A stretch of 64,000 nucleotides of DNA, taken from NCBI GenBank assembly GCA_014323865.1, contig JACONG010000016.1, positions 441,982-505,981 on the forward strand, given 5' to 3'. The translations under genes were made by a program, and so were the position numbers. The DNA comes from Rhodospirillales bacterium. GTDB taxonomy: Bacteria > Pseudomonadota > Alphaproteobacteria > SP197. Shown here one piece after another: positions 1,504-27,988 of the stretch (position 1 is the first letter of the stretch; every line of letters starts with the position of its first letter). The notes under the pieces were generated by a model that ran no database searches, had not been told where the DNA came from, and worked only from the letters and a program-made list of their open reading frames with translations.

Positions 1504-3435
1504 GTGGATGCAAGGGAATTCAAAGTCACTGACATACTAAGCCGGAATGAGAGGTTCGTCGTTCCGCTCTATCAGCGACAATATCAGTGGCACGATCATA
1601 AAGGATATGAAGGCCGCACAAGTTCCTTCTGGCTTGATGTTGTTGCGAAAGCCTCGGAAGTCATCGACAGAAACGCTCGGTTTGATCACTACATGGGAGC
1701 GCTGCTTTTGGCTCCTGAGGCGATGTCACGCTCCTTTGGAGCAACGCCTGTCGTTCAGGTTGTTGATGGGCAACAGCGCCTGACCACGTTTTTGATCATG
1801 CTGGCGGCATTGCGCGAAGTTGGCCGAGGGTACGACCATCAAGTCCTGATCGACCAGATTGAAAAATATCTGTTCAACGAAACTGGTCGCGCCGATACTG
1901 ATCCTCTTTCCCGGTTCAAGCTGACACCTACGCCCGTGGATCGGACTGTTTTCCTCGATATTCTGGAGAATCCTTATTCTGAGGTACGATCAAACAATTG
2001 GGATGAGTATTATTGGGGAGGGCGCGTACCTCAAAATACAGCAGCACGCTCACTCCGGGCCTACGAGTATTTTTATGCCCAGATCAGTGAATTTGTCTCA
2101 GATGGCATGAGCGATGAGACAGAGATCGATATCGACACTGACGAATCCGAAGAGACAACAGATAACGAGAACACGGAAGAAAGCCGGAAGAGACTGGACG
2201 CCCTGCTCGAAGCCCTCGTCTTTCATATGAAGCTGATTGTCATCACTCTTGAGCGTGAAGACGACGCGCAGGTCATCTTTGAGACCTTGAACTCGAAGTC
2301 CCAGCCCCTTCTCGCCATGGACCTCGTGAGAAACAACATCTTCCACAGAGCTGAAGCGCAATATCGCGGGGCAGAAGATGCTCGGAAGAGGGCTGAGCGC
2401 CTTTATCATGAGGTTTGGGGGCCGTTTGATCATGGTTGGTGGCGCGAGAACGCACCGAATGCCCGGCCGGCTCGACCGCGCATCGACCATTTCCTTGCAA
2501 ACGTGCTGACTGCCGAGACAGGTGATCGGATTACGGTCAGAGAACTTTATGCGGAATACCGTGCCTGGGCGACCCCGAAGCGACAACCCAGATTCGAGAA
2601 GGTGGAGGACGAGCTCGCAGTCCTTCAACGTCATGTCCCGGCCTTCGAGACTCTGGAAGGTCGCAAAAAGGGGGACGAGGCCATAGCTTGGCTGGGCGAT
2701 AGACTGCGCCTTTGGCAAAACACCACGGCTTATCCGATAGCATTCCAGATTGCCCTGGACACCGTGGATAGCGAAACGCGTTGGCAGGTCGCGAAATGGC
2801 TTGATAGCTATTTCGCAAGGCGTCTGCTATGCGATCTTACGACCAAGAACCTCAACAAAGTGTTTCCAAGATTGGCCGACACCCTTCACAGCAAGGGCGT
2901 GTCTACCGAAGTCGTCAGAAACTTCTTTTCTGGCATGACAACGGATACCGCCCGATTTCCCAACGATGCCGAACTCAAATCGGGGATTCTTGAGAGTCCA
3001 GCATACGGGCGCGTCCCTTCGCGCATCCTGTCTGACATGTTGTGGTCACTGGAACTGGCGAGCCGGTCTGGTATGACGGAAGCCACGACACGCCCGCCTT
3101 CGATAGAGATCGAACACATCATGCCCCAAAACTGGGAAGAGAATTGGTCTTTGAACGGTGAGTTCGTAGAAACGAACGATTGGCAGATACCAGGCTATCG
3201 GGAGCGCGAGGCCGCTCTCCAGACCCTGGGCAACCTGACAATCGTCACGGACCGACTCAATCCGTCCTTGAGTAACGCGGCGTTTTCGGACAAGAGACGG
3301 AAGCTGGTTGAGCACTCCAATCTTGCCATGAACCGACAGATTGCTGAGCACGACGCGTGGGATGAAATGAGCATCCGGGCTCGGGGTGAAACCCTGGCCG
3401 ATCTTGCTGCCAGGGTCTGGCCTTCACTCGCATAA
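1504..3435 (+). CDS. DUF262/DUF1524 protein (GmrSD/SspE-like restriction enzyme)
   Basis: Single-chain protein of 643 residues. The N-terminal DUF262 domain shows PLYQRQYQW (residues 21-29) and the DGQQR nucleotide-binding/sensor motif (residues 88-92). An acidic linker rich in D/E lies around residue 205-225. The C-terminal DUF1524 HNH nuclease domain shows IEIEHIMPQNW near residue 535 and LGNLTIVTDRLN near 580, giving the His-Asn-type metal site. Members such as GmrSD and SspE cut DNA carrying modified bases or phosphorothioates, using NTP hydrolysis for control. The start is GTG with GGAGGG seven bases upstream. Base composition is near 50 % GC in places against about 65 % around it, and codon use differs from its neighbours, which suggests transfer. 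No dnd/ssp modification genes are beside it, so its trigger is unknown. Confidence 0.85.
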   Translation: MDAREFKVTDILSRNERFVVPLYQRQYQWHDHKGYEGRTSSFWLDVVAKASEVIDRNARFDHYMGALLLAPEAMSRSFGATPVVQVVDGQQRLTTFLIMLAALREVGRGYDHQVLIDQIEKYLFNETGRADTDPLSRFKLTPTPVDRTVFLDILENPYSEVRSNNWDEYYWGGRVPQNTAARSLRAYEYFYAQISEFVSDGMSDETEIDIDTDESEETTDNENTEESRKRLDALLEALVFHMKLIVITLEREDDAQVIFETLNSKSQPLLAMDLVRNNIFHRAEAQYRGAEDARKRAERLYHEVWGPFDHGWWRENAPNARPARPRIDHFLANVLTAETGDRITVRELYAEYRAWATPKRQPRFEKVEDELAVLQRHVPAFETLEGRKKGDEAIAWLGDRLRLWQNTTAYPIAFQIALDTVDSETRWQVAKWLDSYFARRLLCDLTTKNLNKVFPRLADTLHSKGVSTEVVRNFFSGMTTDTARFPNDAELKSGILESPAYGRVPSRILSDMLWSLELASRSGMTEATTRPPSIEIEHIMPQNWEENWSLNGEFVETNDWQIPGYREREAALQTLGNLTIVTDRLNPSLSNAAFSDKRRKLVEHSNLAMNRQIAEHDAWDEMSIRARGETLADLAARVWPSLA

Positions 3436-3521
3436 GCCGGCGAACGCACCCCTTTGTCTCGTTGAATCCAGCGTAGTCCAGCCTGATCCAGTTCTTTTTG
3501 CGCAAGGGCCCCCCTGCGTGA

Positions 3522-4388
3522 TCAGCCCTTCCCTTTCCAGGGAATCAGCCAGCGCTCAAGACGACGCATGATGAGTTCGATGATATAGCCGATCAGGCCG
3601 ATGATGATGATGCCGATGACCACAGTGTCGGTCTGCAGGAAATTCTTGGCGATCATGATCATCGAGCCAAGCCCCTTGTCGGCAGCGACCAGCTCGGCAG
3701 CAACCACCGTGCCCCAGCATACGCCCATCGAGGTCCGCAAGCCCGTGAAGATCTCGGGCAGCGCGTTGGGCAGGATGACGTGGCGCATCACCTGGAACTT
3801 CGAGGCACCGAGCGAATAGGCAGCATGGACCTTCGAGATGCGCACACTGGAAACGCCGGCCCGCGCCGCGATCGTCATAATGAAGAGCGAGGCCAGGAAA
3901 AGCAGGAAGATCTTGGCGAACTCGTCGATGCCGAACCACAGGATGATGAGCGGGATCAGCGCGAGGGGCGGGATCGGCCGCATGAACTCGACGATGGGAT
4001 CAAAGAGGCCCCGACCGATCGACGATAGCCCCATGGCGAAGCCTAGCGGCACCCCGATCAAGGTGCCGTAGAAGACGCCGGACAGCACGCGGTAGACGCT
4101 GATGCCGACGTGGTCCCACAGCGCGACGTTACGGAAGCCTTCGCTGAGAAGCTTGATCAGCCGGTCCCAGGTCGCATCGATCGACGGCCAGTAGAACGGC
4201 TCCACGAGATCGAAGACCGAAGCGATGATCCAGGCGACGAGCAGAATCAGGATGGCGACGATCGAATAGATGCGGCCCGAGTTGACGGCTGTCGCATCAC
4301 CGAACTTGACGGTCTTCTGGCGCGTGAAGGTGTTGTCGGAGAGGCCGAGCCAGATCGAGAGCTCGGAAGGTTTCTTCTTGTCGTCCAT
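3522..4388 (-). CDS. tauC: Taurine-type ABC transporter permease TauC/SsuC
   Basis: Inner-membrane permease of 288 residues for a taurine, sulfonate or related small anionic substrate. Six or so hydrophobic segments follow a charged N-terminus, and the cytoplasmic EAA loop that docks to the ATPase is recognisable around AAYSLGASKFQVMRHVILPNALPEI. It is the last gene of a three-gene minus-strand operon; the tauB stop lies nine bases upstream. Its 3' end faces the incoming DUF262 gene 86 bases away. Family assignment is strong; the substrate rests on similarity of the whole operon to TauABC. Confidence 0.88.
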   Translation of the reverse strand: MDDKKKPSELSIWLGLSDNTFTRQKTVKFGDATAVNSGRIYSIVAILILLVAWIIASVFDLVEPFYWPSIDATWDRLIKLLSEGFRNVALWDHVGISVYRVLSGVFYGTLIGVPLGFAMGLSSIGRGLFDPIVEFMRPIPPLALIPLIILWFGIDEFAKIFLLFLASLFIMTIAARAGVSSVRISKVHAAYSLGASKFQVMRHVILPNALPEIFTGLRTSMGVCWGTVVAAELVAADKGLGSMIMIAKNFLQTDTVVIGIIIIGLIGYIIELIMRRLERWLIPWKGKG

Positions 4389-4397
4389 GGTCGCCTC

Positions 4398-5207
4398 CTA
4401 ACCTTCCGGGCTCTGCACCTGGCCCATGATCTCCTCCTCCATGTTCCAGATCATGGAGAGAACCTCTTCACGGGTGGCGACGAATTCGGCGCCGGCCTTG
4501 ACCTCACGCGCCGGTCGTTCGAGCGCCTCGTCGGGGAATGGCAGGCAGAACTCCTTCTCGATGCGACCGGGCCGCGGCGCCATGACGATCAGCCGTTCGC
4601 CCAGGAAGAGCGCCTCTTCGACCGAATGGGTGATCAGGAGAATCGTCTTGCCCGTTTCCTTCCAGAGCTTGAGCACGAGGTTCTGCATTTTCTCGCGGGT
4701 CAGGGCGTCGAGCGCGCCGAGCGGTTCGTCCATCAGGATGACATCGGGATCGTTTGCCAGGCAGCGAGCGAGCGCGACACGCTGCTGCATGCCGCCCGAC
4801 AGCTGGTAGACCGGCTTGTCGCCGAAACCCTTCAGCCCAACAGTGTTGAGCAGGTGCTCGACCTTGTCCTCGGTCTCGCTCTTGGGCTTGCCGGCCATGC
4901 GCGGTCCAAATGCCACGTTCCTGGCGACCGAGAGCCACTCGAAGAGCGCGCCCTGCTGGAACACCATGCCGCGTTCCGCGCCGGGGCCGCGCACCACGGC
5001 ATCGCCCAGCCGCACCTCGCCCGCCGTAGGCGAGAGGAAACCCGCAATGATGTTGAGCAATGTCGTCTTGCCGCAGCCCGAGGGCCCCAGGACGCTGATG
5101 ATCTCGCCCTGCGCGATATCGAGCGAAACGTCACTCAGCGCATGTACGCTGCCGCCGCCCGGCAAGGTGTAGACCATGGAAATGTTGTCGATCGCGATAC
5201 CTGCCAC
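4398..5207 (-). CDS. tauB: Taurine-type ABC transporter ATP-binding protein TauB
   Basis: ATPase subunit (269 residues) that powers uptake through the TauC permease. All signature parts are present in order: Walker A GPSGCGKTT, Q-loop VFQQGALFEW, signature LSGGMQQRVALARCL, Walker B VILMDEPLGALD and the H-loop ITHSVEEALFL. This is the nitrate/sulfonate/taurine subgroup of ABC ATPases. It lies between the binding protein gene (66 bases upstream) and tauC. No TauD dioxygenase, Xsc or taurine transaminase gene is near, so catabolism of the imported compound must be encoded elsewhere. Confidence 0.9.
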   Translation of the reverse strand: MAGIAIDNISMVYTLPGGGSVHALSDVSLDIAQGEIISVLGPSGCGKTTLLNIIAGFLSPTAGEVRLGDAVVRGPGAERGMVFQQGALFEWLSVARNVAFGPRMAGKPKSETEDKVEHLLNTVGLKGFGDKPVYQLSGGMQQRVALARCLANDPDVILMDEPLGALDALTREKMQNLVLKLWKETGKTILLITHSVEEALFLGERLIVMAPRPGRIEKEFCLPFPDEALERPAREVKAGAEFVATREEVLSMIWNMEEEIMGQVQSPEG

Positions 5208-5272
5208 GGCCCCGTCCCCGCTCTTCCGGAAAGGGTGTCGGACGGCAGGCGAACCTGCCGTCCGATTGGGTG

Positions 5273-6256
5273 CTACTGCAGATAGCTGTAGTCGATGAAC
5301 ATCGAGTAGTCGTCGAGTGACGACTCCATGTTGCCGGCCTCGACCATGACGTCGGCGACACCCTTGGTCATCGCCTGCACGCCGCCACCGAGCCAGTTCT
5401 TGCCCATCTGGTCGTCCGCGCTCGGGAAACCGAAGTTCGCGAGCATCGACGCCGTGGCGTCTTCATCCATGCCCGCGGCACCGGCGATCGTCGAGAGCGA
5501 CGCGGAGGGATCGGCCTTGTAGGCTGCGTTGGCGGCCTCGGTGACCTCCATGAACTTCCGCACAAGATCGGGATGCTCGTCGGCGAAGTCCTCGGTCACG
5601 GTCACGATGTCGAAGGTGTTGATGCCGACGGCTTCCTGCTCGGCGCCGGTCATCAGCGGCGAGCCGACTTCCTTCATGCGATCGAGCGCACCGCCGAAAG
5701 CGCAGCCCATGACGACGTCGCCACGGATCAGCGCGACGGCCGCGTCGGCCGGGTTCATCTGTACGAGTTCGACCTTGGAGGCATCGACACCGAGGTGGTC
5801 GAGCGTGCGCAGCAGCTTGTAATGGGTCACGTTGCCGATCGGCGTGGCGACCTTCATGCCCTCGAGCTCGCTGGCGTTCTCCCGGGTGATGCCGGAGTCG
5901 TCGCGAACAACGCAGAGATCATTCTCGGCATAGGTCACGGCGATGCCAACGAGCTTGAGCGGCGCACCGTTCGAGACACCCACGACGAAGGGCACAAAGC
6001 CCTGGCTGTAGGCGATATGCACATCGCCCGAGACCATGGCCTGGGTCATCTCGTTGCCGTTGCCGAAGGCGCGCCATTCGACCTCGACACCGAGCGCCTC
6101 ATCATAGGTCTTCTCGACCTGGGCGACCTGGTTTGCGGTCGGCCATTCGAGGAAATAGGCCACGGTGATCTTGTCGAGCGCAAGCGCGCCGGTGGCCGTG
6201 GAAACAAGAGCGAACGCGCCAGCCGCAACGCCCGCCATCAGTTTTTTCATGGACAT
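5273..6256 (-). CDS. tauA: Taurine-type ABC transporter substrate-binding protein TauA
   Basis: Periplasmic binding protein of about 327 residues. The ATG at 6256 is chosen because a strong GGGGAGG lies ten bases upstream and a typical Sec signal peptide follows (MSMKKLMAGVAAGAFALVST, cleavage near ALALD). The mature part opens with DKITVAYFLEWPTANQVAQV and carries FGNGNEMTQAMVSGDVHIAY, characteristic of TauA-like proteins. The open frame extends to 6352 but that part has no signal-peptide logic. It heads the tauABC operon; palindromes upstream (6372-6387 and 6445-6463) may control it. Taurine is the likely ligand, but other sulfonates or amines are possible. Confidence 0.88.
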   Translation of the reverse strand: MSMKKLMAGVAAGAFALVSTATGALALDKITVAYFLEWPTANQVAQVEKTYDEALGVEVEWRAFGNGNEMTQAMVSGDVHIAYSQGFVPFVVGVSNGAPLKLVGIAVTYAENDLCVVRDDSGITRENASELEGMKVATPIGNVTHYKLLRTLDHLGVDASKVELVQMNPADAAVALIRGDVVMGCAFGGALDRMKEVGSPLMTGAEQEAVGINTFDIVTVTEDFADEHPDLVRKFMEVTEAANAAYKADPSASLSTIAGAAGMDEDATASMLANFGFPSADDQMGKNWLGGGVQAMTKGVADVMVEAGNMESSLDDYSMFIDYSYLQ

Positions 6257-6371
6257 GGGTTTCTTACCTCCCCAGAGGACCGGAGGATTCCGGCAATTGC
6301 ACAAGAAGAACCCATGCTGGAGGTTATCGTGAGATGCCGCAACCGGCACCACATCAACCGAAGGCCTGCAT

Positions 6372-6387
6372 TTGCCCCTTGAGGGGC
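6372..6387. promoter_or_regulatory. Palindrome upstream of tauA, candidate operator
   Basis: TGCCCCT-TG-AGGGGCA is a perfect 7+7 inverted repeat with a two-base centre, 116 bases upstream of the tauA start. It could be a dimeric regulator site in the tau promoter region. No sigma-70 hexamers were clear next to it. Confidence 0.3.
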
Positions 6388-6444
6388 ATCCCGGCCTGCC
6401 TTGCCCGGCACGGTCTCCCTACGCTTGCAGTTCACACTGGAATC

Positions 6445-6463
6445 TGGTGCCAGTCTGGCACCA
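6445..6463. promoter_or_regulatory. Inverted repeat between the MFS gene and tauA
   Basis: TGGTGCCA-GTC-TGGCACCA is a perfect 8+8 inverted repeat with three central bases. It lies 41 bases after the MFS gene stop and about 190 bases before tauA, both on the minus strand. It may be a terminator hairpin for the MFS gene (no T-tract follows) or an operator for tauABC; the TGGT...ACCA ends recall GntR-type sites. Confidence 0.35.
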
Positions 6464-6503
6464 ACGAGTCCCGATAGTGCGGACCAGTCTTGCGTCCGCC
6501 CCA

Positions 6504-7748
6504 TCAGGCTGAGGCGACGACGGGCTGCGGCCGAGTGCCCCTCGTGATTGTCATGACGGCGACCAGCAGCGCGAGATTGACCACGTTCGCCGCGAAGCCG
6601 AGCAGGAAGGCCCAGCGATAGGTGCCGGTCCAATCGAACATGGAGCCGGCGAACTGGCCGCCTGCCGCCATGCCGATGGCGCCGAAGAGGAAGATCACGC
6701 CGACGCGCCAGCCCAGGCCCTGAGACGGATAGATCGCGCGCAAGGCGACGGCGTACATCGGCACCAGGCCGCCGAAGCCGAAGCCGAAGACCGTCGCGCC
6801 GACCAGCAGCACCGCATAGCTGTCGATCGGAGCGAGGATCAGCAAGCCTGCAGCCTGCATGCCCGAACCCAGCAGCATGGCCTTCATGCCGCCGATGCGG
6901 TCGGCCAGGAATCCCATGCCGAGGCGGCCGACGAAGGATGCGCCCATGATCCAGGCCAGCAGGAAGGCACCGTCCGAACTGGTGTAGCCGATGTCCTGGG
7001 CATGGGAGGCAGCGTGGACCAGCGGCATGGCCATGGCGACGCAGCAGCACAGGATCGCCGCACACAGGAGACCGTGCGGTAGATTCCCGGCAACACCGCC
7101 GACCTGGAAGCCGCCAACCTGGCGCTCGATCCGTTCGGCCTGCATGGCGCTCCAGCCCGGCGGGTTGCCGCGCAGCAGAAGAACCAGCGGCGGCATCGTA
7201 ACCATGGCGAAGGCGCCGTAGATGAAGGTCGCACCGCGCCAGCCGTAGAGTGCGATGAGACTGTCGAAGACATAGGGCCATATGATGCCGGCCAGACCCT
7301 GGCCTGAGGCGACAATGGCGACAGCCAGCCCGCGCTTGCGGTCGAACCAGCGGGTCGCCGTTGTGATCAGTGGCGCAAAAAGCGTGGCATTTCCCATGAA
7401 GCCTATCATCACACCGAAGATCAGGCAGAACTGCCAGGCCTCGGTCACGCGGGTCAGCGCGAGGGCGCCCGAGGGAATCATCATGGCGCCGATAAGCGCC
7501 ACCGGTGCCACGCCCACCTTGTCGGCCCAGCGGCCCATCAGGATACCACCCACGCCGGTGCCCAGCATCTCGAGCGCATAGGCCGCCGACGTCGTACCGC
7601 GCGACCAGCCCATGTCGTCGGAGATCGTCTTCACGTTCGACCACAGCAGGTACTCGATCCCCATGCCGATCGAGATCAGCAACAGCGACGCGAGGGCAAC
7701 GCGCCAGGCCGACAGGCTGTCGGCGACACCGTCCGGGGGCTGCGTCAT
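6504..7748 (-). CDS. Major facilitator superfamily transporter
   Basis: A 12-helix inner-membrane carrier of 414 residues. The start at 7748 (MTQPPDGVADSLSAWRVALAS) is chosen because the longer frame to 7862 begins with translated tandem repeat and sequence belonging to the neighbouring gene. The conserved loop 2-3 motif appears as GRWADKVGVAP and loop 8-9 as GFLADRIGGMKA. A long central loop (RIERQVGGFQVGGVAGN) separates the halves. The arrangement resembles monocarboxylate or oxalate/formate-type MFS carriers, but the substrate cannot be read from the sequence. It precedes tauABC on the same strand with a 247-base gap. Confidence 0.82.
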   Translation of the reverse strand: MTQPPDGVADSLSAWRVALASLLLISIGMGIEYLLWSNVKTISDDMGWSRGTTSAAYALEMLGTGVGGILMGRWADKVGVAPVALIGAMMIPSGALALTRVTEAWQFCLIFGVMIGFMGNATLFAPLITTATRWFDRKRGLAVAIVASGQGLAGIIWPYVFDSLIALYGWRGATFIYGAFAMVTMPPLVLLLRGNPPGWSAMQAERIERQVGGFQVGGVAGNLPHGLLCAAILCCCVAMAMPLVHAASHAQDIGYTSSDGAFLLAWIMGASFVGRLGMGFLADRIGGMKAMLLGSGMQAAGLLILAPIDSYAVLLVGATVFGFGFGGLVPMYAVALRAIYPSQGLGWRVGVIFLFGAIGMAAGGQFAGSMFDWTGTYRWAFLLGFAANVVNLALLVAVMTITRGTRPQPVVASA

Positions 7749-8443
7749 CGAAACACCATAGGATAGGAGGCCATAGGATGGGAGGCCATAGGGCGGGAGG
7801 GAACGGACATCGGACCTCGCTGAACGCAGCGAGCCTGGATCCGCTTCCGGCGGGCGCGCCATCGCGCGAGATCATCGGCGGTATCGATGTCGTGCAAGAC
7901 ACCGAGCAGTGCGACACGGGCATCGGCAGGCAGACCGGCCAGCGTATCGGCGAGCGCATGTTCGCTCGACCAGCGAACCGCTCCGAAGAGAGACCTCAGG
8001 CGCAGGGACGGGCCCGCGCCAATCAGCCAATAGCCGCCGTCGTCGGACGGACCGAGGACCGCATCATGGCTGCGCAGCAGGCGGAAGGCCTGTGCGATGT
8101 GACCGGGCGTCAGATCGGGGATGTCACTGCCGACAATGAGGACCGGTCCCGGGGGCCTGCCATCGATCGCCGCCTGCATGCGTTCGCCGAGATCGCCGTC
8201 CGACTGCGGAACGACCGGCAGGCCCAGGGTCCACGTCTCGTCGCCTGTCGCCGCATCGGGCGGGGTCACGGCAACCACGGTGGACCAGCGCGACGATCGC
8301 CCGATGCGCGTCAACATGCGCCGCAGCATGGATCGATAGAAGGCGAGCGCGGCCGCGTTCCCGATCCCGGCGGCAAGACGCGTCTTGACCCGGCCGGGCT
8401 CCGGGCGCCGGGCCATCACGACGACATGGCGCCGATCTCTCAT
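7745..8443 (-). CDS. DUF2064 / TIGR04282-type glycosyltransferase-fold protein
   Basis: About 232 residues with a nucleotide-sugar-transferase (GT-A) fold of the TIGR04282 (arsenosugar-biosynthesis-named) group. Recognisable parts are VVMARRPEPGRVKTRLA at the N-terminus, LIVGSDIPDLTPGHI (metal-binding GSDIP) and LGPSDDGGYWLIG. The ATG at 8443 overlaps the TGA of the upstream gene by four bases (ATGA), indicating coupled translation. The last 15 codons carry three in-frame 15-bp repeats encoding PMASH, PMASY and PMVFR, an odd C-terminal tail produced by tandem duplication. Reaction and substrate are not established for this bacterial pair; the arsenic link is only inherited from the family name. 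Confidence 0.8.
   Translation of the reverse strand: MRDRRHVVVMARRPEPGRVKTRLAAGIGNAAALAFYRSMLRRMLTRIGRSSRWSTVVAVTPPDAATGDETWTLGLPVVPQSDGDLGERMQAAIDGRPPGPVLIVGSDIPDLTPGHIAQAFRLLRSHDAVLGPSDDGGYWLIGAGPSLRLRSLFGAVRWSSEHALADTLAGLPADARVALLGVLHDIDTADDLARWRARRKRIQARCVQRGPMSVPSRPMASHPMASYPMVFR
7756..7800. repeat. 15-bp tandem repeat, three copies
   Basis: Three copies of a CCATAGG(A/G)...GGAGG unit at 7756-7770, 7771-7785 and 7786-7800. The unit length of 15 keeps the reading frame of the DUF2064 gene, whose C-terminus it extends, and it lies just upstream of the MFS start. Confidence 0.85.
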
Positions 8444-9120
8444 CCGTAAAGCTTCACGATGACGCGGGGCGGAACGCCCAGGTAGTACGACGCGAGGCAT
8501 ACCAGGTTGCGCAGCATGCGCGGTGTATAGCCCATGCGTCGGTACCGCGCCGGGCTCGTGACGGCGTCGCACGGCAGGGTCATCAGCCGCCGCCGTCCGA
8601 TGCGGCGCACCATGTCGACGTCCTCCATGATCGGTATCGGCTTGAAGCCGCCCAGGCGGTCGTAGTGCGTCCGCGCGATAACCAGCCCCTGGTCGCCGTA
8701 GGGCAGGCCGAGCCATCGGCTTCGGCGGCTGGCGAACCACTCGACGCGGCGCGCACCGGACGCCTCGTCATCGAAGCGCAGGCGAAACACCGCCGCGCTG
8801 TCGGCGTTGTTCCGGTCACCGACGAAGCCGGCGATGAGACGGTCCCAGCCGTCGTCGAGCCAGGTGTCGGCGTGCAGGAAGAACAGCCATGGCGCGTCGG
8901 ACGCCGCGGCCCCGGCGGCGAGCTGGCTGCCCCTGCCGCGAGCCGCCTCGACCAGCGTCACGCCGAGAGCACGCGCGAGCTCCGGCGTCGGATCGCTCGA
9001 TCCGCCGTCGACCACCACAGGCTCGATCGCCAGGACATCCGTTGCCTGCACGCGCTCAAGCGTCCGCTGCAAGCCCGCAGCGGCGTTGAGTGCCGGGATG
9101 ATGACGGCGATGCGTTCCAT
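8440..9120 (-). CDS. TIGR04283-type family 2 glycosyltransferase
   Basis: A GT2 (GT-A fold) protein of 226 residues. The N-terminal strand MERIAVIIPALNAAAGL, the substrate motif VVVDGGSSDPT, the DxD-type HADTWL and the later GLPYGDQGLVI and PIMEDVDMVRRI are all hallmarks of the TIGR04283 group. The ATG at 9120 fits the family start; the longer frame to 9180 adds an unrelated stretch. It forms a coupled pair with the DUF2064 gene (ATGA overlap), an arrangement seen in many bacteria. No ArsM or other arsenic gene is present, so the product sugar conjugate is unknown. No membrane segment is visible except a weakly hydrophobic C-terminus. Confidence 0.83.
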   Translation of the reverse strand: MERIAVIIPALNAAAGLQRTLERVQATDVLAIEPVVVDGGSSDPTPELARALGVTLVEAARGRGSQLAAGAAASDAPWLFFLHADTWLDDGWDRLIAGFVGDRNNADSAAVFRLRFDDEASGARRVEWFASRRSRWLGLPYGDQGLVIARTHYDRLGGFKPIPIMEDVDMVRRIGRRRLMTLPCDAVTSPARYRRMGYTPRMLRNLVCLASYYLGVPPRVIVKLYG

Positions 9121-21013: not shown

Positions 21014-21235
21014 TATCCGGAGGCAAATCCGGACCCCGAAAGGGCATCGGCGCCAACGCCGGTGCCCCTCGTCTTCCCGAAGAGATCGAGGCACGTGTCT
21101 GGCCAGTGACGCTCTGACGGATGGGGGCTTCCGCCCGGTGACCTCCGGGAGGCCATCGCAACGATTATCGATAGCTTGACGCCACAGCACGGCACGAACG
21201 TCTTCGCCGCCGGGGATAACAATGATCGTTCAATG

Positions 21236-22288
21236 TCAATCGATGTCGAGCGGGGGCAGGGTGTTCACGATTTTCACGGTCTCCAGGCTGACGGTGATGA
21301 CACGCCGGAACAGGTCGAGCGGGTAGCGGGGATCGCCCATGGTCTCGTTGGCAAAGTCGTTGGCATCGTTGACGATGCCGCTGGCCTTGTCGGTCTTCAC
21401 CGCCTGCCGTTGCATCACCCATTCGAGTGCGGGCCTGCCGTTGACGATGTAGTCCCAGGCTTCCGGCGGAATGTCCGTGATGACGATGTGCTCGTTGTAG
21501 ATGACCGTGGTTCTGTCCTTCTCCCGTCCCTTGCCGCCGAACTTCATCTTCCTCACCCGGTAGAACGCGACCGGATCGGTCCGGGCCTCCGTTATCAGGC
21601 GGTGGTCGCCTTCCCTGAAGGTGACCGCAAAGGGCTCGACGCTGCCGAAATTCACATGCAGGTCGCCAAGGGCGCGGCCCGCATCGCGGAAGGCGGCAAA
21701 ATCCTCGAAGCGCTTCACCGGCGGAATGCGCGGCAGGGCCTTGGCGAGGTTGTTTCCGAAGCGTGTGCGATAGTCGGGCGCATGAAGCAGGCCATAGATA
21801 TAGTAGAAGAGGTCTTCCTTGCCGATGTCCCGACCGGGATAGGCGGCGCGGAACGGTGCCAGCCCCGCATCGGCAATGGCCTCGCGGCGGGTGAGGTCAT
21901 GGCCGGTTTCGGTCTCCCCGCCGCTCAAGAGACCGCCCTCCGGCCCTGCCTGCTCGTAGAGGTAGAGCGGGAAGCACTGGCCTTTTTCTATCGTGTCAAA
22001 ATTGGGCACCGCGTCCGTCATCAGTGCTGAAAACCCGGCCCCCGCTCCGGTGCCCGAGACCTGGATGACCCTGTTTTTTGCCTCCGCATGGGGGAAGATG
22101 CGCGGCATCCGGTAGACCATCTCATTCAAGCGGCGGTCAAAATAAAGCCATTGTTTGTGAAACGGGCGATAGAGGCTGGGAACGATGTTCCCCGCGTCGA
22201 ATGCTATCCTGCGGCCCTTCTTCAGGTCCTGTTTCAGGGCGCGGCTCCAGTTGATTGCCCTGGAGTCGGTGTTGACGAAGCCATCCAC
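21236..22288 (-). pseudogene. 3' part of the frameshifted restriction-modification gene
   Basis: This 350-codon frame continues the large restriction-modification gene in another reading frame. It begins inside the target-recognition region (GFVNTDSRAINWSRALKQDL, then SLYRPFHKQWLYFDRRLNEMVY), which in related single-chain enzymes directly follows the methyltransferase part. Its first ATG is not a natural start: the codons before it (reading Asp-Val) continue the alignment. It carries the DNA-specificity domain and ends at 21236 about 250 bases from the convergent atpF. Without it the upstream polypeptide would lack most of its recognition domain. Confidence 0.8.
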
Positions 22289-25200
22289 ATCGGGCTTTCC
22301 CCGGCCTCGGCATGGCGGTCAGCTTCGGCGTTGTAGAATTCGATCATGCGGGCCATGTTGTCCATGAGTTTCCTGTGGCTCGACTGGATGCACCATGCAT
22401 CGCGGCTGGTGACAATTCCGCAGGAGTAATTCCCGAATATCGCCATATCGGCTGACGTCTTGTCACCCATTGCAGGGAAACGCTCGAAGCTCCGGTCCAC
22501 CTGATCGAGCCAGTCGTTGTTCGCGTCCGGCGTAATCTGTGTCCAGTTCCCGGCCTGTGTGATGCCATCGATCGAACGGAAGTCCCGGATAAGGCCCAGC
22601 TTCTGTTCGCGGTCGAGATCGTCGCCGATGTCGTGGAAACGGATGTGCCCGTGTTCCGTCGCCCCGGGGTTCTTGACCAGAATGGCAATGGATGTGCCGG
22701 TCATGCTGGCCGATCCGAAGATGTTCCCCCCTTCCCCGGCAGCCCCCTTCGAGAGCATATCCTTGCGGATGTCGCCCCGCAGGTGGAACACATAAAGATC
22801 GCTGAACTCCTCGGCCAGACACGCGCGCAGACCGTCCATCGCATTGCCATCAATCCAACCCGCATTGGTGACAAAGGCCATCACGCCCGCATCCCCGATC
22901 CGGTCGCTGGCCCAGCGGAAGGCGCGGATGTAGCTGTCATAAAGGTTTTTCTTCAGCACAGCATTGGAACGATCCGCGTAGGTGTCCCTGATCCTGGCGT
23001 CGAGGTTTTCGTATTTCAGATTCTTTGCATTATCGTTTTCTTTCTTCTGCCCGGCAGAATAGGGCGGGTTGCCTACGATCACCCGGATATCGAGTTTCTT
23101 CTGCCGCGTCCGGCGTTCCGAATTGTCGGGCAGCAGGTCGGCGATCATGTCGCGTTCCTGTTCGTACATCTGGAACGTGTCGGTCAGCGCGATACCGGTA
23201 AAGGGCTCGTAGGGCGCGTTGTCCGACAATGCGCCATGGGCCCGTTCACGATACACGGTCTCGATATTGATGGCCGCGATGTAATAGGCCAGCAGCACGA
23301 TCTCGTTGGCGTGAATCTCACAGGCGTATTTGTGCGCCATTTCTTCGGGCGCGATCAGGTCCGACTGCAGGAGCCGGGCGATGAAGGTGCCCGTGCCGGT
23401 GAAGGGGTCGAGGATATGCACACCCCTCGATCCCAGTGTCTGGCCGAACTGAGCCTTCAGCACGTCATTGACCGAACGGAGGATGAAGTCCACCACCTCG
23501 ACCGGCGTGTAGACGATGCCCAGCCGCCCGGTCAGGTGCGGAAAGGCATTGCGGAAGAACCGGTCGTATAGATCGGCGATCAGCCTCTGGCGCCCGTCGG
23601 CGGTGACCACATCTTCGGCGCGGCGCGCCACGCTGGCATAGAACCGGTCCAGGTCTGTCGTTTCCTTTGCCAGATTGTGGCCATGCAACTGTTCCAGCAC
23701 GGTTTCCATGGCACGCGATACCGGGTTCTGTGCCGTAAAGGCGTTGTCCCCGAAGAGCGTGTCGAAGACAGGCTTCGCGATGAGATGCTGGGCCAGCATC
23801 TCGATGGCCTCCGCCTCGGTGATCGACGGGTTCAGGTCGTCGCGCAGTTCCTCAAGGAACGCCAGGAAGGCCTGCCGCGCCGGGCCGTCACAGGCAACGA
23901 TGGTCCCGATGCGTGTGATGTGCGTGCCGGCAATCCGCGCGATATCCCCGGTCCAGGTTTCCCAGTAGTCGCGGGTGCCGCATTTCTCGACAATCCTCGC
24001 CATGATGGCGCGGGTTACGGCGTCGAATGCCAGCTCGTACTGGGGTTCCGGGTTATGGATGTACCGGGCTCCCGGGTCACGGCCCCCGCGCCCTTCCTTC
24101 CCGGTCCCGCCGGTGGAGAAATCCTCGACAACGGCGGTCACCGCATCGAGTTCCGCCACACGTATCAGGGCGATCCGGTCGCTGATATCCTCGCCGATGC
24201 GGGCCTGGTTGATGCGCGCATCGAGCCGTTCGTCATGGGCGCGCAGCGCGTTCAGGATCTGCCAGATCACCCGGTAGCGCTCATTGTCATTGAGCGCCTC
24301 CTCGGGGCTGATGTCGGGCGGAATGGCAACGGGCAGGATGACATAGCCCAGCGTCTTGCCTTCGGCCCGGCGCATGACGCGGCCCACCGACTGCACCACT
24401 TCGATCTGGCTCTTGCGCGGATGCATGAACAGGATCGCATCCAGGGCAGGCACGTCCACCCCTTCGGACAGAACCCTTACGTTGGTCAGGATGCGGCAGG
24501 TGTCCTCGCCTGCCTCTTCACGGAGCCAGTCCAGCCTCTCCTCGCGCGCCGAAGCATTGAATTTGCCGTCGATATGGCGCACCTCGGTGGTGATGTGCCG
24601 GACATCCTCGCCGGAGTCGCTGGTGTATTCGGCAACCACCTGCGCAAACTCCTTCTCGACGATGCGGGAGGCGGCAATTTTGTCGCAGAACACCAGCGCC
24701 CGCTTCATGGGGCAGGTATCGTCCTTCATGCCCTCCTTCGCCAGCGCCTTGTAGCAGCCGACGATCTTGGTCGCGTCGCCCAGCGTCAGTTCGGGCCCGT
24801 CGCGCAGGCGGTTCTGCACAGTCGTCGAGACCAGCCTTTCGTCCACCGCCAGCACGACCACCTTGTAATCGGTCAGCAGCCCGTCCTCCACCGCCTGGCC
24901 AAAGCCCAGATGGAACAGTGTCTCGCCGAACATCTCCGCGTCATCCATCGAGGCGAGGGCGGCCTCATGGTCGTCCGCCTTCCGCTTCGCCCCTTCCCCG
25001 AAGATACGCGGCGTCGCCGTCATGTAGAGCCGCTTGCGGGCCGACACGTGTTCGTTGCGGTGGATGCGCACGAAGGCGCTGTCGTCCTCCCCCTTGAGCG
25101 TGACGCCCGTGGTGCGGTGCGCCTCGTCGCAGATCGCGAGATCGAACGCCGGCAGGCCGTGGTCCTTCTGCGCGCGGGTCAGCACGTCGATGGAGTGATA

Positions 25201-26196
25201 GGTGGCAAAGACCACCGTCATCCGCTCCGCCGGGGCACCGGCCACCTGACCGGCGAGCCGGTCCGCATCGGTCGTGGCCGGAAAGGCCAGGTCATGCACG
25301 GTCAGGTCGAGGCTGTCGGGGTCCGGCCGCCTCTTGCCCACCGCCTGATCCGAGCAGACCGAAAAGGCGGTGAAGTCCTGCGCACAGTCGGTCTTCCATT
25401 CGCGCACCGTCTGCGACATCAGCGCCAGCGACGGCACCATGCAGAGCACACGCCCGCCACGCCCCGCCATGGTCTCGGCAATCGCAAGCGCGGTGAAGGT
25501 CTTGCCCGTGCCACAGGCCATGATCAGCTTGCCGCGGTCGGCGTCTGCAAGACCCTTGGTCACCGCCTGCAGCGCATTGCGCTGGTGGTCGCGCAGCTCC
25601 TTCTTCGGCGCGAGGCTGACCGTGCCGCTGCGCAGGAACCGCGACCAGTCGATGCCGCTGGCCTCCAGCTCGCCAAGCCCGATCCGGTTCCAGTTCTTCG
25701 AGAGGTTTTCGAGCGTTTCCTTCGCATTTCGCCCGAAGCCGTCCTGGCTCGTGTCAACAATAATCAGGCGGGTGAACGTCTCGTTTCCCGCCGCCGAGAT
25801 GAAGCTGTCGATCGCGGGCTTGGAGATGCGCCCGCCGCGCTCCAGAAACTTGCACTGGATCGCCGCATGGCCCGAGCCGTCGGCATGTGTCGCCACCAGA
25901 TCGATCCCGATGTCGGTCCTCGCCCGGCCCTGCGCCTCGGCCCACTCGCCATAGGGCTTCACATCCGACCAGAACTGTTTCTGCACCGGATCGTGCAGAA
26001 GATAGGCGCGCACAACCCGCTCGAAACAGTCGCCCTTCTCGCGTTCCGAACGCGCCTCGGCGCGAAATCGCTCCAGAATGTCGCGCAGCGACATTGCGCC
26101 CGGCTCCGCCGCCGGGCCGCCATCTGTCACCGCCCTGACGTCATGCCGTGGATCTTGTTCGTCTTTGTCCGTTCCCGTCATAACCTTTTCCGTCAT
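22234..26196 (-). CDS. Type ISP restriction-modification enzyme (LlaGI-like), frameshifted near 3' end
   Basis: A single-polypeptide restriction-modification protein. Parts in order: an Mrr-like PD-(D/E)xK nuclease (Asp99 in GIDLVATH, QCK at 114-116); a superfamily 2 helicase/translocase with GTGKT near residue 225, CDEAHRTTG near 355 and SVGRVMRR; an adenine-N6 methyltransferase with DPFTGTGTF near 928 and NPPY near 1041; then the start of the target-recognition domain. The frame shifts at about residue 1303, adding a short foreign tail, and the rest lies at 21236-22288. Together they would give about 1650 residues, typical of LlaGI/LlaBIII. Start ATG 26196 has GGAG seven bases upstream; the apparent extension to 26304 is translated tRNA. 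The whole gene could be active only if the frameshift is a sequencing error. Confidence 0.88.
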   Translation of the reverse strand: MTEKVMTGTDKDEQDPRHDVRAVTDGGPAAEPGAMSLRDILERFRAEARSEREKGDCFERVVRAYLLHDPVQKQFWSDVKPYGEWAEAQGRARTDIGIDLVATHADGSGHAAIQCKFLERGGRISKPAIDSFISAAGNETFTRLIIVDTSQDGFGRNAKETLENLSKNWNRIGLGELEASGIDWSRFLRSGTVSLAPKKELRDHQRNALQAVTKGLADADRGKLIMACGTGKTFTALAIAETMAGRGGRVLCMVPSLALMSQTVREWKTDCAQDFTAFSVCSDQAVGKRRPDPDSLDLTVHDLAFPATTDADRLAGQVAGAPAERMTVVFATYHSIDVLTRAQKDHGLPAFDLAICDEAHRTTGVTLKGEDDSAFVRIHRNEHVSARKRLYMTATPRIFGEGAKRKADDHEAALASMDDAEMFGETLFHLGFGQAVEDGLLTDYKVVVLAVDERLVSTTVQNRLRDGPELTLGDATKIVGCYKALAKEGMKDDTCPMKRALVFCDKIAASRIVEKEFAQVVAEYTSDSGEDVRHITTEVRHIDGKFNASAREERLDWLREEAGEDTCRILTNVRVLSEGVDVPALDAILFMHPRKSQIEVVQSVGRVMRRAEGKTLGYVILPVAIPPDISPEEALNDNERYRVIWQILNALRAHDERLDARINQARIGEDISDRIALIRVAELDAVTAVVEDFSTGGTGKEGRGGRDPGARYIHNPEPQYELAFDAVTRAIMARIVEKCGTRDYWETWTGDIARIAGTHITRIGTIVACDGPARQAFLAFLEELRDDLNPSITEAEAIEMLAQHLIAKPVFDTLFGDNAFTAQNPVSRAMETVLEQLHGHNLAKETTDLDRFYASVARRAEDVVTADGRQRLIADLYDRFFRNAFPHLTGRLGIVYTPVEVVDFILRSVNDVLKAQFGQTLGSRGVHILDPFTGTGTFIARLLQSDLIAPEEMAHKYACEIHANEIVLLAYYIAAINIETVYRERAHGALSDNAPYEPFTGIALTDTFQMYEQERDMIADLLPDNSERRTRQKKLDIRVIVGNPPYSAGQKKENDNAKNLKYENLDARIRDTYADRSNAVLKKNLYDSYIRAFRWASDRIGDAGVMAFVTNAGWIDGNAMDGLRACLAEEFSDLYVFHLRGDIRKDMLSKGAAGEGGNIFGSASMTGTSIAILVKNPGATEHGHIRFHDIGDDLDREQKLGLIRDFRSIDGITQAGNWTQITPDANNDWLDQVDRSFERFPAMGDKTSADMAIFGNYSCGIVTSRDAWCIQSSHRKLMDNMARMIEFYNAEADRHAEAGESPMWMASSTPTPGQSTGAAP

Positions 26197-26222
26197 ACTG
26201 GGCTCCACAATGTGCGGCCGCG

Positions 26223-26310
26223 TGGCGGAGGGAGCGGGATTCGAACCCGCGAGGGCTTTCACCCAACACGCTTTCCAGGCGTGCGCCTTGAACCGCTCGG
26301 CCATCCCTCC
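26223..26310 (-). tRNA. tRNA-Ser (anticodon GGA)
   Basis: On the minus strand the acceptor stem GGAGGGA (26310-26304) pairs with TCCCTCC (26233-26227), followed by discriminator G and an encoded CCA at 26225-26223. The T-arm GGTTCGAATCC is intact, the anticodon loop reads CTGGAAA giving GGA for UCC/UCU codons, and a long variable arm is present as expected for serine. The restriction-modification gene begins 27 bases after the CCA on the same strand. Confidence 0.96.
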
Positions 26311-26485
26311 GGAAGGGTGCGAGCCTAGAACGTCTTCATCTCAAGCTGAATGGAAAAAGGGGGCCCCCATTCGTTCCGCCACATGATTCTGTACCCACAA
26401 GTCACACGGGAAGCAGATATGGCGCGTTGTTACGGATTGGACCTTCGCCACCGCAGGATATGACCGCGATCAAATTGAATCTGCT

Positions 26486-27988
26486 CTAGGCAGCCCGGTT
26501 TGTCTCCGGTTGCGGTCGCCAAGTCAGCACCGGATGGCGGGCTGCCGCCGTTTCGTCCAGGCGGCTCCAGGGTGCCAGATGCGGTGCGTCGTGGAACCAC
26601 GCGGCGTCGCCCGACTGTGCGCGCTCCATGAGGTGCAGCATGGTGTCGCAGAAGAGGTCGAGGCTCTGCCTGCTTTCGGTCTCGGTCGGTTCGATCAGCA
26701 TGGCACCGTGCACGACCAGCGGGAAGTACATGGTCATCGGGTGAAAACCCTCGTCGATCATTGCCTTGGCGAGGTCGAGCGTGCTGACGTCGGTGTCCCT
26801 CAGCGTGTGATCGTCGAACAGGCACTCGTGCATGCAGGGGCCGGGGAACGGCAGGTTGTAGGCACCCTTGAGGCGCGCCATGACGTAGTTGGCGTTGAGC
26901 ACCGAATCCTCGGCGACCTGGCGCAGGCCGTCCGAGCCGTGGCTCATCATGTAGGCCAGGGCACGCACGAACATGCCCATCTGGCCGTGGAATCCGCGCA
27001 GCCGGCCAAAAGACTTGCCGGTCGCATCCTGTTCCACCAGCGACCACGATTCGCCGTCGGCCACGACGCAGGGCAGCGGCGCATAGGGCACGAGCGGCTC
27101 CGACAGAACCACGGGCCCGCTGCCCGGCCCGCCGCCGCCGTGCGGCGTCGAGAAGGTCTTGTGGAGGTTGATGTGCATGGCATCGACACCGAGGTCGCCG
27201 GGCCTGACCCGGCCGACGATGGCGTTGAAGTTCGCACCGTCGGCATAGAAAAAGGCGCCTGCGTCATGGATCAGCTCGGCCACCTGGACGACCTCGTCCT
27301 CGAACAGGCCGCAGGTGTTGGGGTTGGTCAGCATGAGCGCTGCGACATCCTCATCGAGCGCTTCCCTGAGCACCTCGACATCAATGCGCCCGCGCGCATT
27401 GGCGGGGATCGACTCGACCTTGTAGCCGCACAGCGCCGCCGTCGCCGGGTTCGTCCCGTGGGCCGATTCGGGCGCGAGAACGCGCTTGCGCGCATCGCCC
27501 CGGTCGGTCAGCGCGGCCCGGATCGTCATGAGCCCGGCGAGCTCGCCATGGGCACCCGCGGCCGGCGACATCGCCACACCCGGCATGCCCGTCAGCGTGC
27601 AGAGCCAGTGGGCCAGCGTGCCGATCAGTTCCAGGCAGCCCGTCACCGTCTGTTGCGGCTGCAGGGGATGCGCCATCGCAAAGCCTGGCAGACGCGCCAC
27701 CTTCTCGTTGAGCCGGGGGTTGTGCTTCATCGTGCACGAGCCCAGAGGGTAGAGCCCGGCATCGATCGCGTAGTTCTTCTGGGAGAGCCGGGTGAAGTGG
27801 CGCACCACCTGGGGTTCCGACACACCGGGCAGGCCTATCCGGCCTGCGCGTTCCAGGCCGCCGAGCTTCAGGGCCAGGCCCTCGGGCTCCGGCAGGTCGA
27901 CACCCGTGCGGCCGTCGGCATCCTGTTCGAACAGCAGTGGTTCGTGCATCACAAGGCCACGATGGCCCGAGGACGTCATCTGGGTCAT
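26486..27988 (-). CDS. gcvPB: Glycine dehydrogenase (decarboxylating), subunit 2
   Basis: C-terminal half of the two-chain P-protein, 500 residues. It binds pyridoxal phosphate through the lysine in [21 protein letters not shown] and decarboxylates glycine, passing the aminomethyl group to Gcv[22 protein letters not shown] and [13 protein letters not shown] are diagnostic. The ATG at 27988 overlaps the end of gcvPA by four bases. It closes the gcvT-H-PA-PB operon; the minus-strand tail at 26340-26370 has a GC-rich, self-complementary stretch followed by five T residues that may end transcription. Confidence 0.97.

What the first reader, a model, noticed from the sequence alone, without database searches (positions are those of the whole stretch)
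26190..26312. Restriction-modification gene starts 27 bases after a tRNA-Ser CCA end
There is hardly room for a separate promoter, so the restriction gene may be transcribed from the tRNA-Ser promoter, tying its expression to tRNA processing. tRNA 3' ends are also common integration sites, which fits an acquired gene here. No integrase and no second copy of the tRNA 3' end were found at the other side.
Basis: partly seen in the sequence, partly recalled or inferred. Interest (0 to 1): 0.5.

Follow-up and report, generated by a model that had tools for sequence, protein, structure and literature searches.

The report
Restriction gene beside a displaced tRNA-Ser
A DNA-cutting defence gene sits right behind a second, displaced copy of a serine tRNA gene, at a spot where related bacteria have neither, and it looks like the broken, stranded remains of the tRNA-anchored mobile islands that carry this kind of gene elsewhere.

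Summary
The geometry is real: a well-formed tRNA-Ser(GGA) with encoded CCA (26223-26310, minus) is followed on the same strand by a Type ISP restriction-modification gene. In 15 of 18 homologues the start matches ATG 26094, which leaves 128 nt. A frameshift near 22290 cuts off most of the specificity domain.

Neither tRNA nor gene is at this place in relatives: both are absent in 13 of 13 family genomes where gcvPB and atpF are neighbours. The genome has a second tRNA-Ser(GGA) downstream of lepA, as have 10 of 15 relatives. So the tRNA here is an ectopic extra copy, and the simple 'island integrated into a resident tRNA' reading fails.

The integration idea keeps indirect support. Three of 18 homologous genes lie between a tRNA-Ser and a 14-nt repeat of its 3' end, with a P4-type integrase. 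The native tRNA-Ser here has a decayed integrase behind it.

IS630-family relics flank the tRNA-gene unit. The displaced tRNA keeps a -10-like element but not the -35, so tRNA-promoter drive is weak. Best reading: a stranded, decaying piece of a tRNA-Ser-anchored defence island.

The parts
26223..26310 (-). ectopic second tRNA-Ser(GGA) gene with encoded CCA; 97% identical to the lepA-linked copy; three differences, which by eye fall in loops
26311..26327 (-). tRNA leader with -10-like TAGGCT; 14 of 17 letters equal to the native copy's leader; native -35 missing
26095..26222 (-).
22235..26094 (-). Type ISP restriction-modification gene, first frame from the likely start: Mrr nuclease, helicase, ISP coupler, N6 methylase, first part of the specificity domain
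21236..22288 (-). rest of the Type ISP gene in another frame: most of the C-terminal specificity domain; ends like homologues do (LPPLDID)
21136..21212 (+). relic of the 3' end of an IS630-family transposase gene; 12 other clear copies in the genome
26325..26489 (+). IS630-derived miniature element: left end fused to right end, CTAG at both edges, the right edge in the gcvPB stop codon
20488..20979 (+). atpF-like ATP synthase b subunit gene, left neighbour conserved in relatives
26486..27988 (-). gcvPB glycine dehydrogenase subunit 2 gene, right neighbour conserved in relatives

Best explanation
This is a displaced and decaying fragment of a defence island of the kind that anchors at tRNA-Ser genes. 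The fragment consists of a full extra tRNA-Ser(GGA), cut 5' at its -10-like element, plus the Type ISP gene behind its 3' end. It lies in the convergent gap between gcvPB and atpF. The tRNA starts just behind the gcvPB stop codon if the small IS630-derived element now lying between them is a later insertion. IS630-family pieces, dispersed through this genome, lie at both edges and may have taken part in the move or in later decay.

Shown: the ectopic tRNA; absence of tRNA and gene from this place in relatives; tRNA-Ser islands around three homologous genes; an integrase relic at the native tRNA; IS630 relics at both edges; the frameshift in the assembly; the missing -35. Inferred: that tRNA and gene arrived together, the order of events, and the role of IS630.

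If the gene were expressed whole, the enzyme would act as known Type ISP enzymes do: methylation, ATP-driven translocation and cleavage by a single chain. As sequenced, the specificity domain is out of frame, so function is probably lost.
For: Empty site: gcvPB and atpF are convergent neighbours on one contig in 13 of 15 other family genomes, 90 to 6285 bp apart, with no tRNA and no Type ISP gene between them in any of the 13. In the other two the genes lie on separate contigs (G015) or far apart (G008).

Ectopic tRNA: one search finds two copies at 97-100% in the own genome, and one close copy (88-97%) in each of 16 other genomes; the 17th, G016, has only a 77% match. The second own copy lies 54 bp downstream of lepA. 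In relatives the copy is downstream of lepA on the same strand in 10 of 15: within about 1.5 kb in 6 and 1.5 to 8.1 kb away in 4 more (G011, G012, G005, G002). In the other 5, lepA is on another contig or not found. Homology of the two own copies covers the tRNA plus 17 nt upstream and stops at the CCA.

Island habit: of 18 homologue loci, 6 hold a tRNA, 4 of them tRNA-Ser. In L035, L039 and L040 the last 14 nt of that tRNA recur beyond the Type ISP gene and a P4-type integrase lies beside one end (Pfam run on the L040 one only). Native tRNA-Ser here: an Arm-DNA-bind_3 integrase relic 112 nt behind it. G009 has a three-domain integrase at the same tRNA, and G005 a 19-nt 3'-end repeat 2.4 kb away.

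IS630.
Against: No integrase and no attR-like repeat lie beside the displaced unit. No genome was found that carries the same tRNA-gene pair in an island, so the joint move is not seen directly. Three of the six tRNA-bearing homologue loci show no 3'-end repeat, and 12 of 18 loci have no tRNA within the fetched flanks. Four of those 12 (L033, L038, L044, L047) have a more distant integrase-like gene (25-26% identity) upstream of the Type ISP gene, so other carriers than tRNA-Ser islands may exist. The IS630 pieces do not form a tidy composite transposon: the left piece is a 77-bp internal fragment, and the right one sits in its own CTAG target as if it had inserted separately.
Confidence: 0.6

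Rival explanations
1. The tRNA-Ser was duplicated into the gcvPB-atpF gap first. A P4-type island carrying the Type ISP gene then integrated at the 3' end of that copy, and later lost its integrase and right end.
For: Homology between the two tRNA copies stops exactly at the CCA, as at an attL junction. tRNA-Ser ends are used by such islands in three homologue loci and in this genus.
Against: No attR and no integrase at the site. No relative shows the tRNA alone at this place (0 of 13). It needs two rare events.
Confidence: 0.2
2. IS630-mediated move: two IS630 elements in the same orientation carried the tRNA and the gene between them, or recombination between IS630 copies inserted a circle.
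For: IS630-family pieces in the same orientation at both edges, the family being dispersed in this genome.
Against: Neither edge piece is a whole element. The right one has left and right ends of its own and CTAG at both edges, which fits a separate later insertion. Such relics are common here, so chance association is possible.
Confidence: 0.15
3. One reading: the restriction gene is co-transcribed with the tRNA from the tRNA-Ser promoter and released by tRNA processing.
For: Same strand, no terminator-like or promoter-like site called between them, and a usable GGAG before ATG 26196.
Against: Likely start at 26094. The -35 of the tRNA-Ser promoter pattern is missing. The gene is frameshifted.
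Confidence: 0.1
4. An assembly or binning artefact joined the tRNA-gene block to this place, or produced the frameshift.
For: The genome is in 18 contigs, and the frameshift sits in a stretch with short runs of G, A and C.
Against: The contig is 905 kb and the genome 99.88% complete with 0.58% contamination. Edge relics match the same genome's own IS630 copies, and the tRNA resembles the own native copy.
Confidence: 0.07

Closest known systems
Type ISP restriction-modification enzymes (LlaGI, LlaBIII)
   Same: Domain order Mrr nuclease, helicase, ISP coupler, N6 methylase, ISP C-terminal specificity domain, as the abstract of PMC4666363 (start seen in the listing) describes for the type.
   Different: Here most of the specificity domain is split off by a frameshift. 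The 18 close homologues are alphaproteobacterial by their record titles (class recalled); relatives also lie on plasmids (802 records with a match, 148 over at least 80% of the query). That LlaGI is lactococcal is recalled.
tRNA-anchored defence islands with P4-type (arm-type) integrases, such as E. coli hotspot 37 at leuX (passages of PMC12707154)
   Same: Defence gene directly behind a tRNA 3' end; integrases at the same tRNA in the genus; three homologous genes in such islands at tRNA-Ser.
   Different: No integrase and no second att at this place, and the tRNA itself is an ectopic extra copy rather than the conserved chromosomal site.
IS630-family miniature elements (MITE-like)
   Same: Ends of an IS630-family element fused, CTAG at both edges, dispersed copies.
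   Different: Here a piece lies at each edge of a tRNA-defence gene unit; a role in its movement is not shown.

Membership tests
Type ISP restriction-modification enzyme | Mrr-type nuclease, helicase, coupler, methylase and ISP specificity domains in one chain | tested here: inconclusive
   All five domains present over Pfam cut-offs in the right order, but in two reading frames; sequence family met, single chain not met as sequenced
Type ISP restriction-modification enzyme | ATP-driven translocation, cleavage and methylation activity | not testable with these tools
   needs the protein
tRNA-anchored genomic island | gene block directly behind a tRNA 3' end, absent from relatives | tested here: met
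tRNA-anchored genomic island | the tRNA is the conserved resident site, present without the island in relatives | tested here: not met
   0 of 13 comparable relatives have a tRNA at this place
tRNA-anchored genomic island | repeat of the tRNA 3' end at the far side | tested here: not met
   19-nt pattern with up to 2 mismatches: no copy near the gene other than the tRNA itself
tRNA-anchored genomic island | integrase gene in the block | tested here: not met
   tblastn with two recombinases of L040 (P4-type and Xer-like): no hit in the 64-kb window at E 1e-4
IS630 composite transposon | two whole IS630 copies at the edges with outer TA duplications | tested here: not met
   left piece is an internal 77-bp fragment, right piece a 165-bp fused element

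The most novel reading that the evidence does not exclude
A defence island can take its own tRNA attachment gene along. The ectopic tRNA-Ser(GGA), cut back to its -10-like element, may now be expressed only by read-through or by a promoter in the IS630-derived element, while also offering a fresh, movable attachment site for P4-type integrases at a new chromosomal place.
Probability: 0.12. Interest if true: 0.55.

Novelty: new variant of a known kind. Interest (0 to 1): 0.33.

Why it matters
It shows how 'a defence gene next to a tRNA' can mislead: here the tRNA is not the old site but part of what was added. It also gives a concrete link, in three named alphaproteobacterial genomes, between Type ISP genes, P4-type integrases and tRNA-Ser ends. 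If tRNA genes do travel with islands, each move creates a new docking site, which bears on how defence islands spread along a chromosome.

Tried and rejected
A 10-bp direct repeat GAACGTCTTC at 21196-21205 and 26328-26337 first looked like a target duplication around tRNA plus gene. Both copies proved to lie inside IS630 sequence (one internal, one at the left end), so it is not counted as such. The same applies to an apparent 11-bp repeat at 21202 and 26443 (seen by eye).

A terminal inverted repeat between the two edges was looked for by exact words: none of 9 nt or more, two of 8 nt against about 0.9 expected in shuffles.

RNA-level control of the likely start by pairing with the tRNA 3' end: the inverted repeat 26104-26120/26214-26230 is not used in the minimum-energy fold of tRNA plus leader. 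The leader with the first codons folds better than its shuffles (z -3.19), but together with the tRNA it does not stand out (z -1.33). Not pursued.

A foreign donor for the tRNA: among 385 genomes drawn from the class, the own native copy is the closest (94% over 105 nt). That draw shows only G008 of the genus, besides the own genome, among its matches. G005, compared, is nearly as close (93% over 107 nt). A donor outside the genus is thus less likely; own lineage or a near relative stays open.

A shared element with the Type ISP genes of G008: the one with the coupler domain lies about 84 kb from that genome's tRNA-Ser(GGA) and is about 47% identical; a second related frame there is 39% identical. 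Taken as unrelated events.

The promoter comparison used hexamers chosen after looking at the alignment, so it is a description, not a blind test. Three of the 17 other copies (G011, G013, G049) do not show the pattern.

Of the homologue loci, five carry a tRNA within their short flanks (L125, L126, L139, L142, L144), not counting the own one. Only L125 and L126 were tested for a 3'-end repeat, without success.

One search was added for it and raised the count to 10 of 15 (downstream of lepA, not always adjacent).

Full report
What is there. A tRNA-Ser(GGA) gene with encoded CCA lies at 26223-26310 on the minus strand (Rfam 60.6 bits). Behind it on the same strand is a Type ISP restriction-modification gene: Mrr nuclease, ResIII/helicase, ISP coupler and N6 methylase in one frame, and most of the ISP specificity domain in another frame, 21236-22288. 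The frame change lies near 22290. The C-terminus matches those of homologues (LPPLDID in L042 and L045), so apart from the frame change the gene has both its ends. By eye the usual motifs (Walker A, DEAH, NPPY) are intact in the first frame; these motif names are recalled. The long frame 22234-26304 also runs in frame through the tRNA, which is a reading-frame accident.

The start codon. Reading the upstream frames of the 18 homologues shows that 15 have an ATG opening the conserved block M(Q/E)LxxLL, at the place of own ATG 26094; L036 and L041 have one 3 and 9 codons further upstream, and L045 has none there. The 34-codon stretch before it has a lower third-position GC (64.7% against 82.1%). 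ATG 26094 is the likely start, and the spacer is 128 nt. ATG 26196 is not excluded, since it has a good GGAG before it.

The place in relatives. The family holds 16 genomes including this one. In 13 of the other 15, gcvPB and atpF are convergent neighbours on one contig. The gap between the protein matches is 90-254 bp in seven genomes and longer in G014 (969 bp), G002 (3334 bp), G003 (6285 bp), G011, G012 and G013 (about 1.7, 3.7 and 2.3 kb, from the coordinates). None of the 13 has a tRNA (ARAGORN) or a match to the Type ISP protein (tblastn, E 1e-5) there. The two others cannot be compared (G015 on separate contigs, G008 rearranged). The coupler domain is found in 2 of 16 family genomes, here and in G008 at an unrelated place.

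The tRNA is an extra copy. One search finds a second tRNA-Ser(GGA) in the genome, 97% identical, about 268 kb away and 54 bp downstream of lepA. In 10 of 15 relatives the tRNA-Ser(GGA) is likewise downstream of lepA on the same strand: within about 1.5 kb in G001, G003, G006, G007, G008 and G015, and 1.5 to 8.1 kb away in G011, G012, G005 and G002. In G009, G010, G013 and G014 lepA is on another contig, and in G004 it was not found. So lepA marks the old site. The two own copies share the tRNA and 17 nt before it (14 of 17 letters), and nothing beyond the CCA. Over tRNA plus leader the displaced copy is 94% identical to the native one and 93% to that of G005, and no genome among 385 drawn from the class is closer than the native one. 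The three differences fall by eye in loops (alignments), so both copies look usable.

The promoter. Before 14 of 17 other copies the sequence reads TTG(C/T) at the -35 place, then 17 nt after that hexamer TAGG(T/G)T, the latter starting 17-18 nt (25 in four genomes) before the tRNA. The displaced copy has TAGGCT at 17 nt, but TTCAGC where the -35 should be. The hexamers were chosen after seeing the alignment. The first three letters of TAGGCT coincide with the CTAG edge of the IS630-derived element, and hence with the gcvPB stop-codon sequence. So the move kept the -10-like part and lost the rest.

The edges. Sequence 26338-26453 has 13 other copies or partial copies in the genome and 26443-26480 has 10 (24 matches including itself at E up to 1). 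Sequence 21136-21212 has 12 others (of 17 matches, one being itself and four weak). Alignments show an element with CTAG edges at 26325-26489 whose left and right ends are fused, and an internal fragment at 21136-21212. Next to 4 of the 12 copies of the second kind lies a DDE_3 transposase piece (C4, C8, C16 and C18). One relic frame matches the IS630 transposase model weakly (E 0.00056, far below its cut-off) and no Pfam family at E 0.001. The family is therefore IS630-like and decayed.

Islands of the homologues. Of 18 homologue loci from named genomes, six hold a tRNA and four of these are tRNA-Ser. In L035 (Celeribacter), L039 (Kordiimonadales bacterium IMCC3096) and L040 (Roseivivax) the last 14 nt of the tRNA-Ser recur on the other side of the Type ISP gene, with a P4-type integrase beside one end (Pfam domains checked for L040 only). 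L041, L045 and L046 show no such repeat, nor do L125 and L126, whose flanks are short. Four loci without a tRNA (L033, L038, L044, L047) have a distant integrase-like gene upstream of the Type ISP gene (25-26% identity). In this genus the same tRNA-Ser is used: G009 has a three-domain integrase behind it, the own native copy has an integrase relic, and G005 has a 19-nt 3'-end repeat 2.4 kb away. L115 (G008) shows neither. The other relatives' tRNA-Ser loci were not tested for this.

Reading. Members of this gene family travel in tRNA-Ser-anchored islands, and this copy still sits directly behind a tRNA-Ser 3' end. But the tRNA is displaced, the integrase and right end are missing, IS630 relics mark the edges, and the gene is broken. 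The simplest account is a stranded fragment, tRNA plus cargo, in a gap that also took other inserts in relatives. That tRNA and gene moved together is inferred from their common absence in relatives; a two-step history remains possible.

Literature. Searches of the held library listed 1 of 1, 12 of 24, 1 of 1, 8 of 16 and 0 of 0 papers. No title or abstract start seen in these listings describes Type ISP genes at tRNA-Ser or an ectopic tRNA moving with a restriction gene; the papers themselves were not read for it. Only passages of PMC12707154 were read (12 of 16 places); PMC4666363 was seen as the start of its abstract in the listing.

Noticed in passing
L112 (G002) 3979-7314: The same gcvPB-atpF gap in a relative holds a 3.3-kb insert with the same 24-nt sequence inverted at its outer ends (by eye), an IS1595-type transposase and an IrrE-like metallopeptidase: the gap is a repeated insertion place.
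   Followed up: partly
L122 (G003) 2448-8734: Another relative has 6.3 kb of seemingly metabolic genes in the same gap (by eye and recall: a substrate-binding protein, an SDR oxidoreductase and a homocysteine methyltransferase).
   Followed up: no
L040 3583-15365: An about 11.8-kb island in Roseivivax jejudonensis between tRNA-Ser(GGA) and a 14-nt repeat of its 3' end, with a P4-type integrase, a Xer-like recombinase (by eye) and a Type ISP gene.
   Followed up: partly
L045 7707-8001: In Marinovum algicola a tRNA-Phe ends about 220 nt before the matched start of a Type ISP gene on the same strand; no 3'-end repeat was found in the locus.
   Followed up: partly
G000 contigs C1, C4, C5, C6, C8, C10, C13, C14, C15, C16, C18: The genome is strewn with short relics of one IS630-like element, ends and transposase pieces apart, many miniature.
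   Followed up: partly
L107 8023-8463: A decayed P4-type integrase lies 112 nt behind the native tRNA-Ser(GGA), a trace of an older island there.
   Followed up: partly
26104-26120 and 26214-26230: A 17-nt inverted repeat, 82% complementary, joins the tRNA 3' end region with the GGAG before ATG 26094; the predicted fold of tRNA plus leader does not use it.
   Followed up: partly
L033, L038, L044, L047, upstream of the Type ISP match: Four homologue loci without a tRNA carry a distant tyrosine-integrase-like gene upstream of the Type ISP gene, which suggests a second kind of carrier.
   Followed up: no
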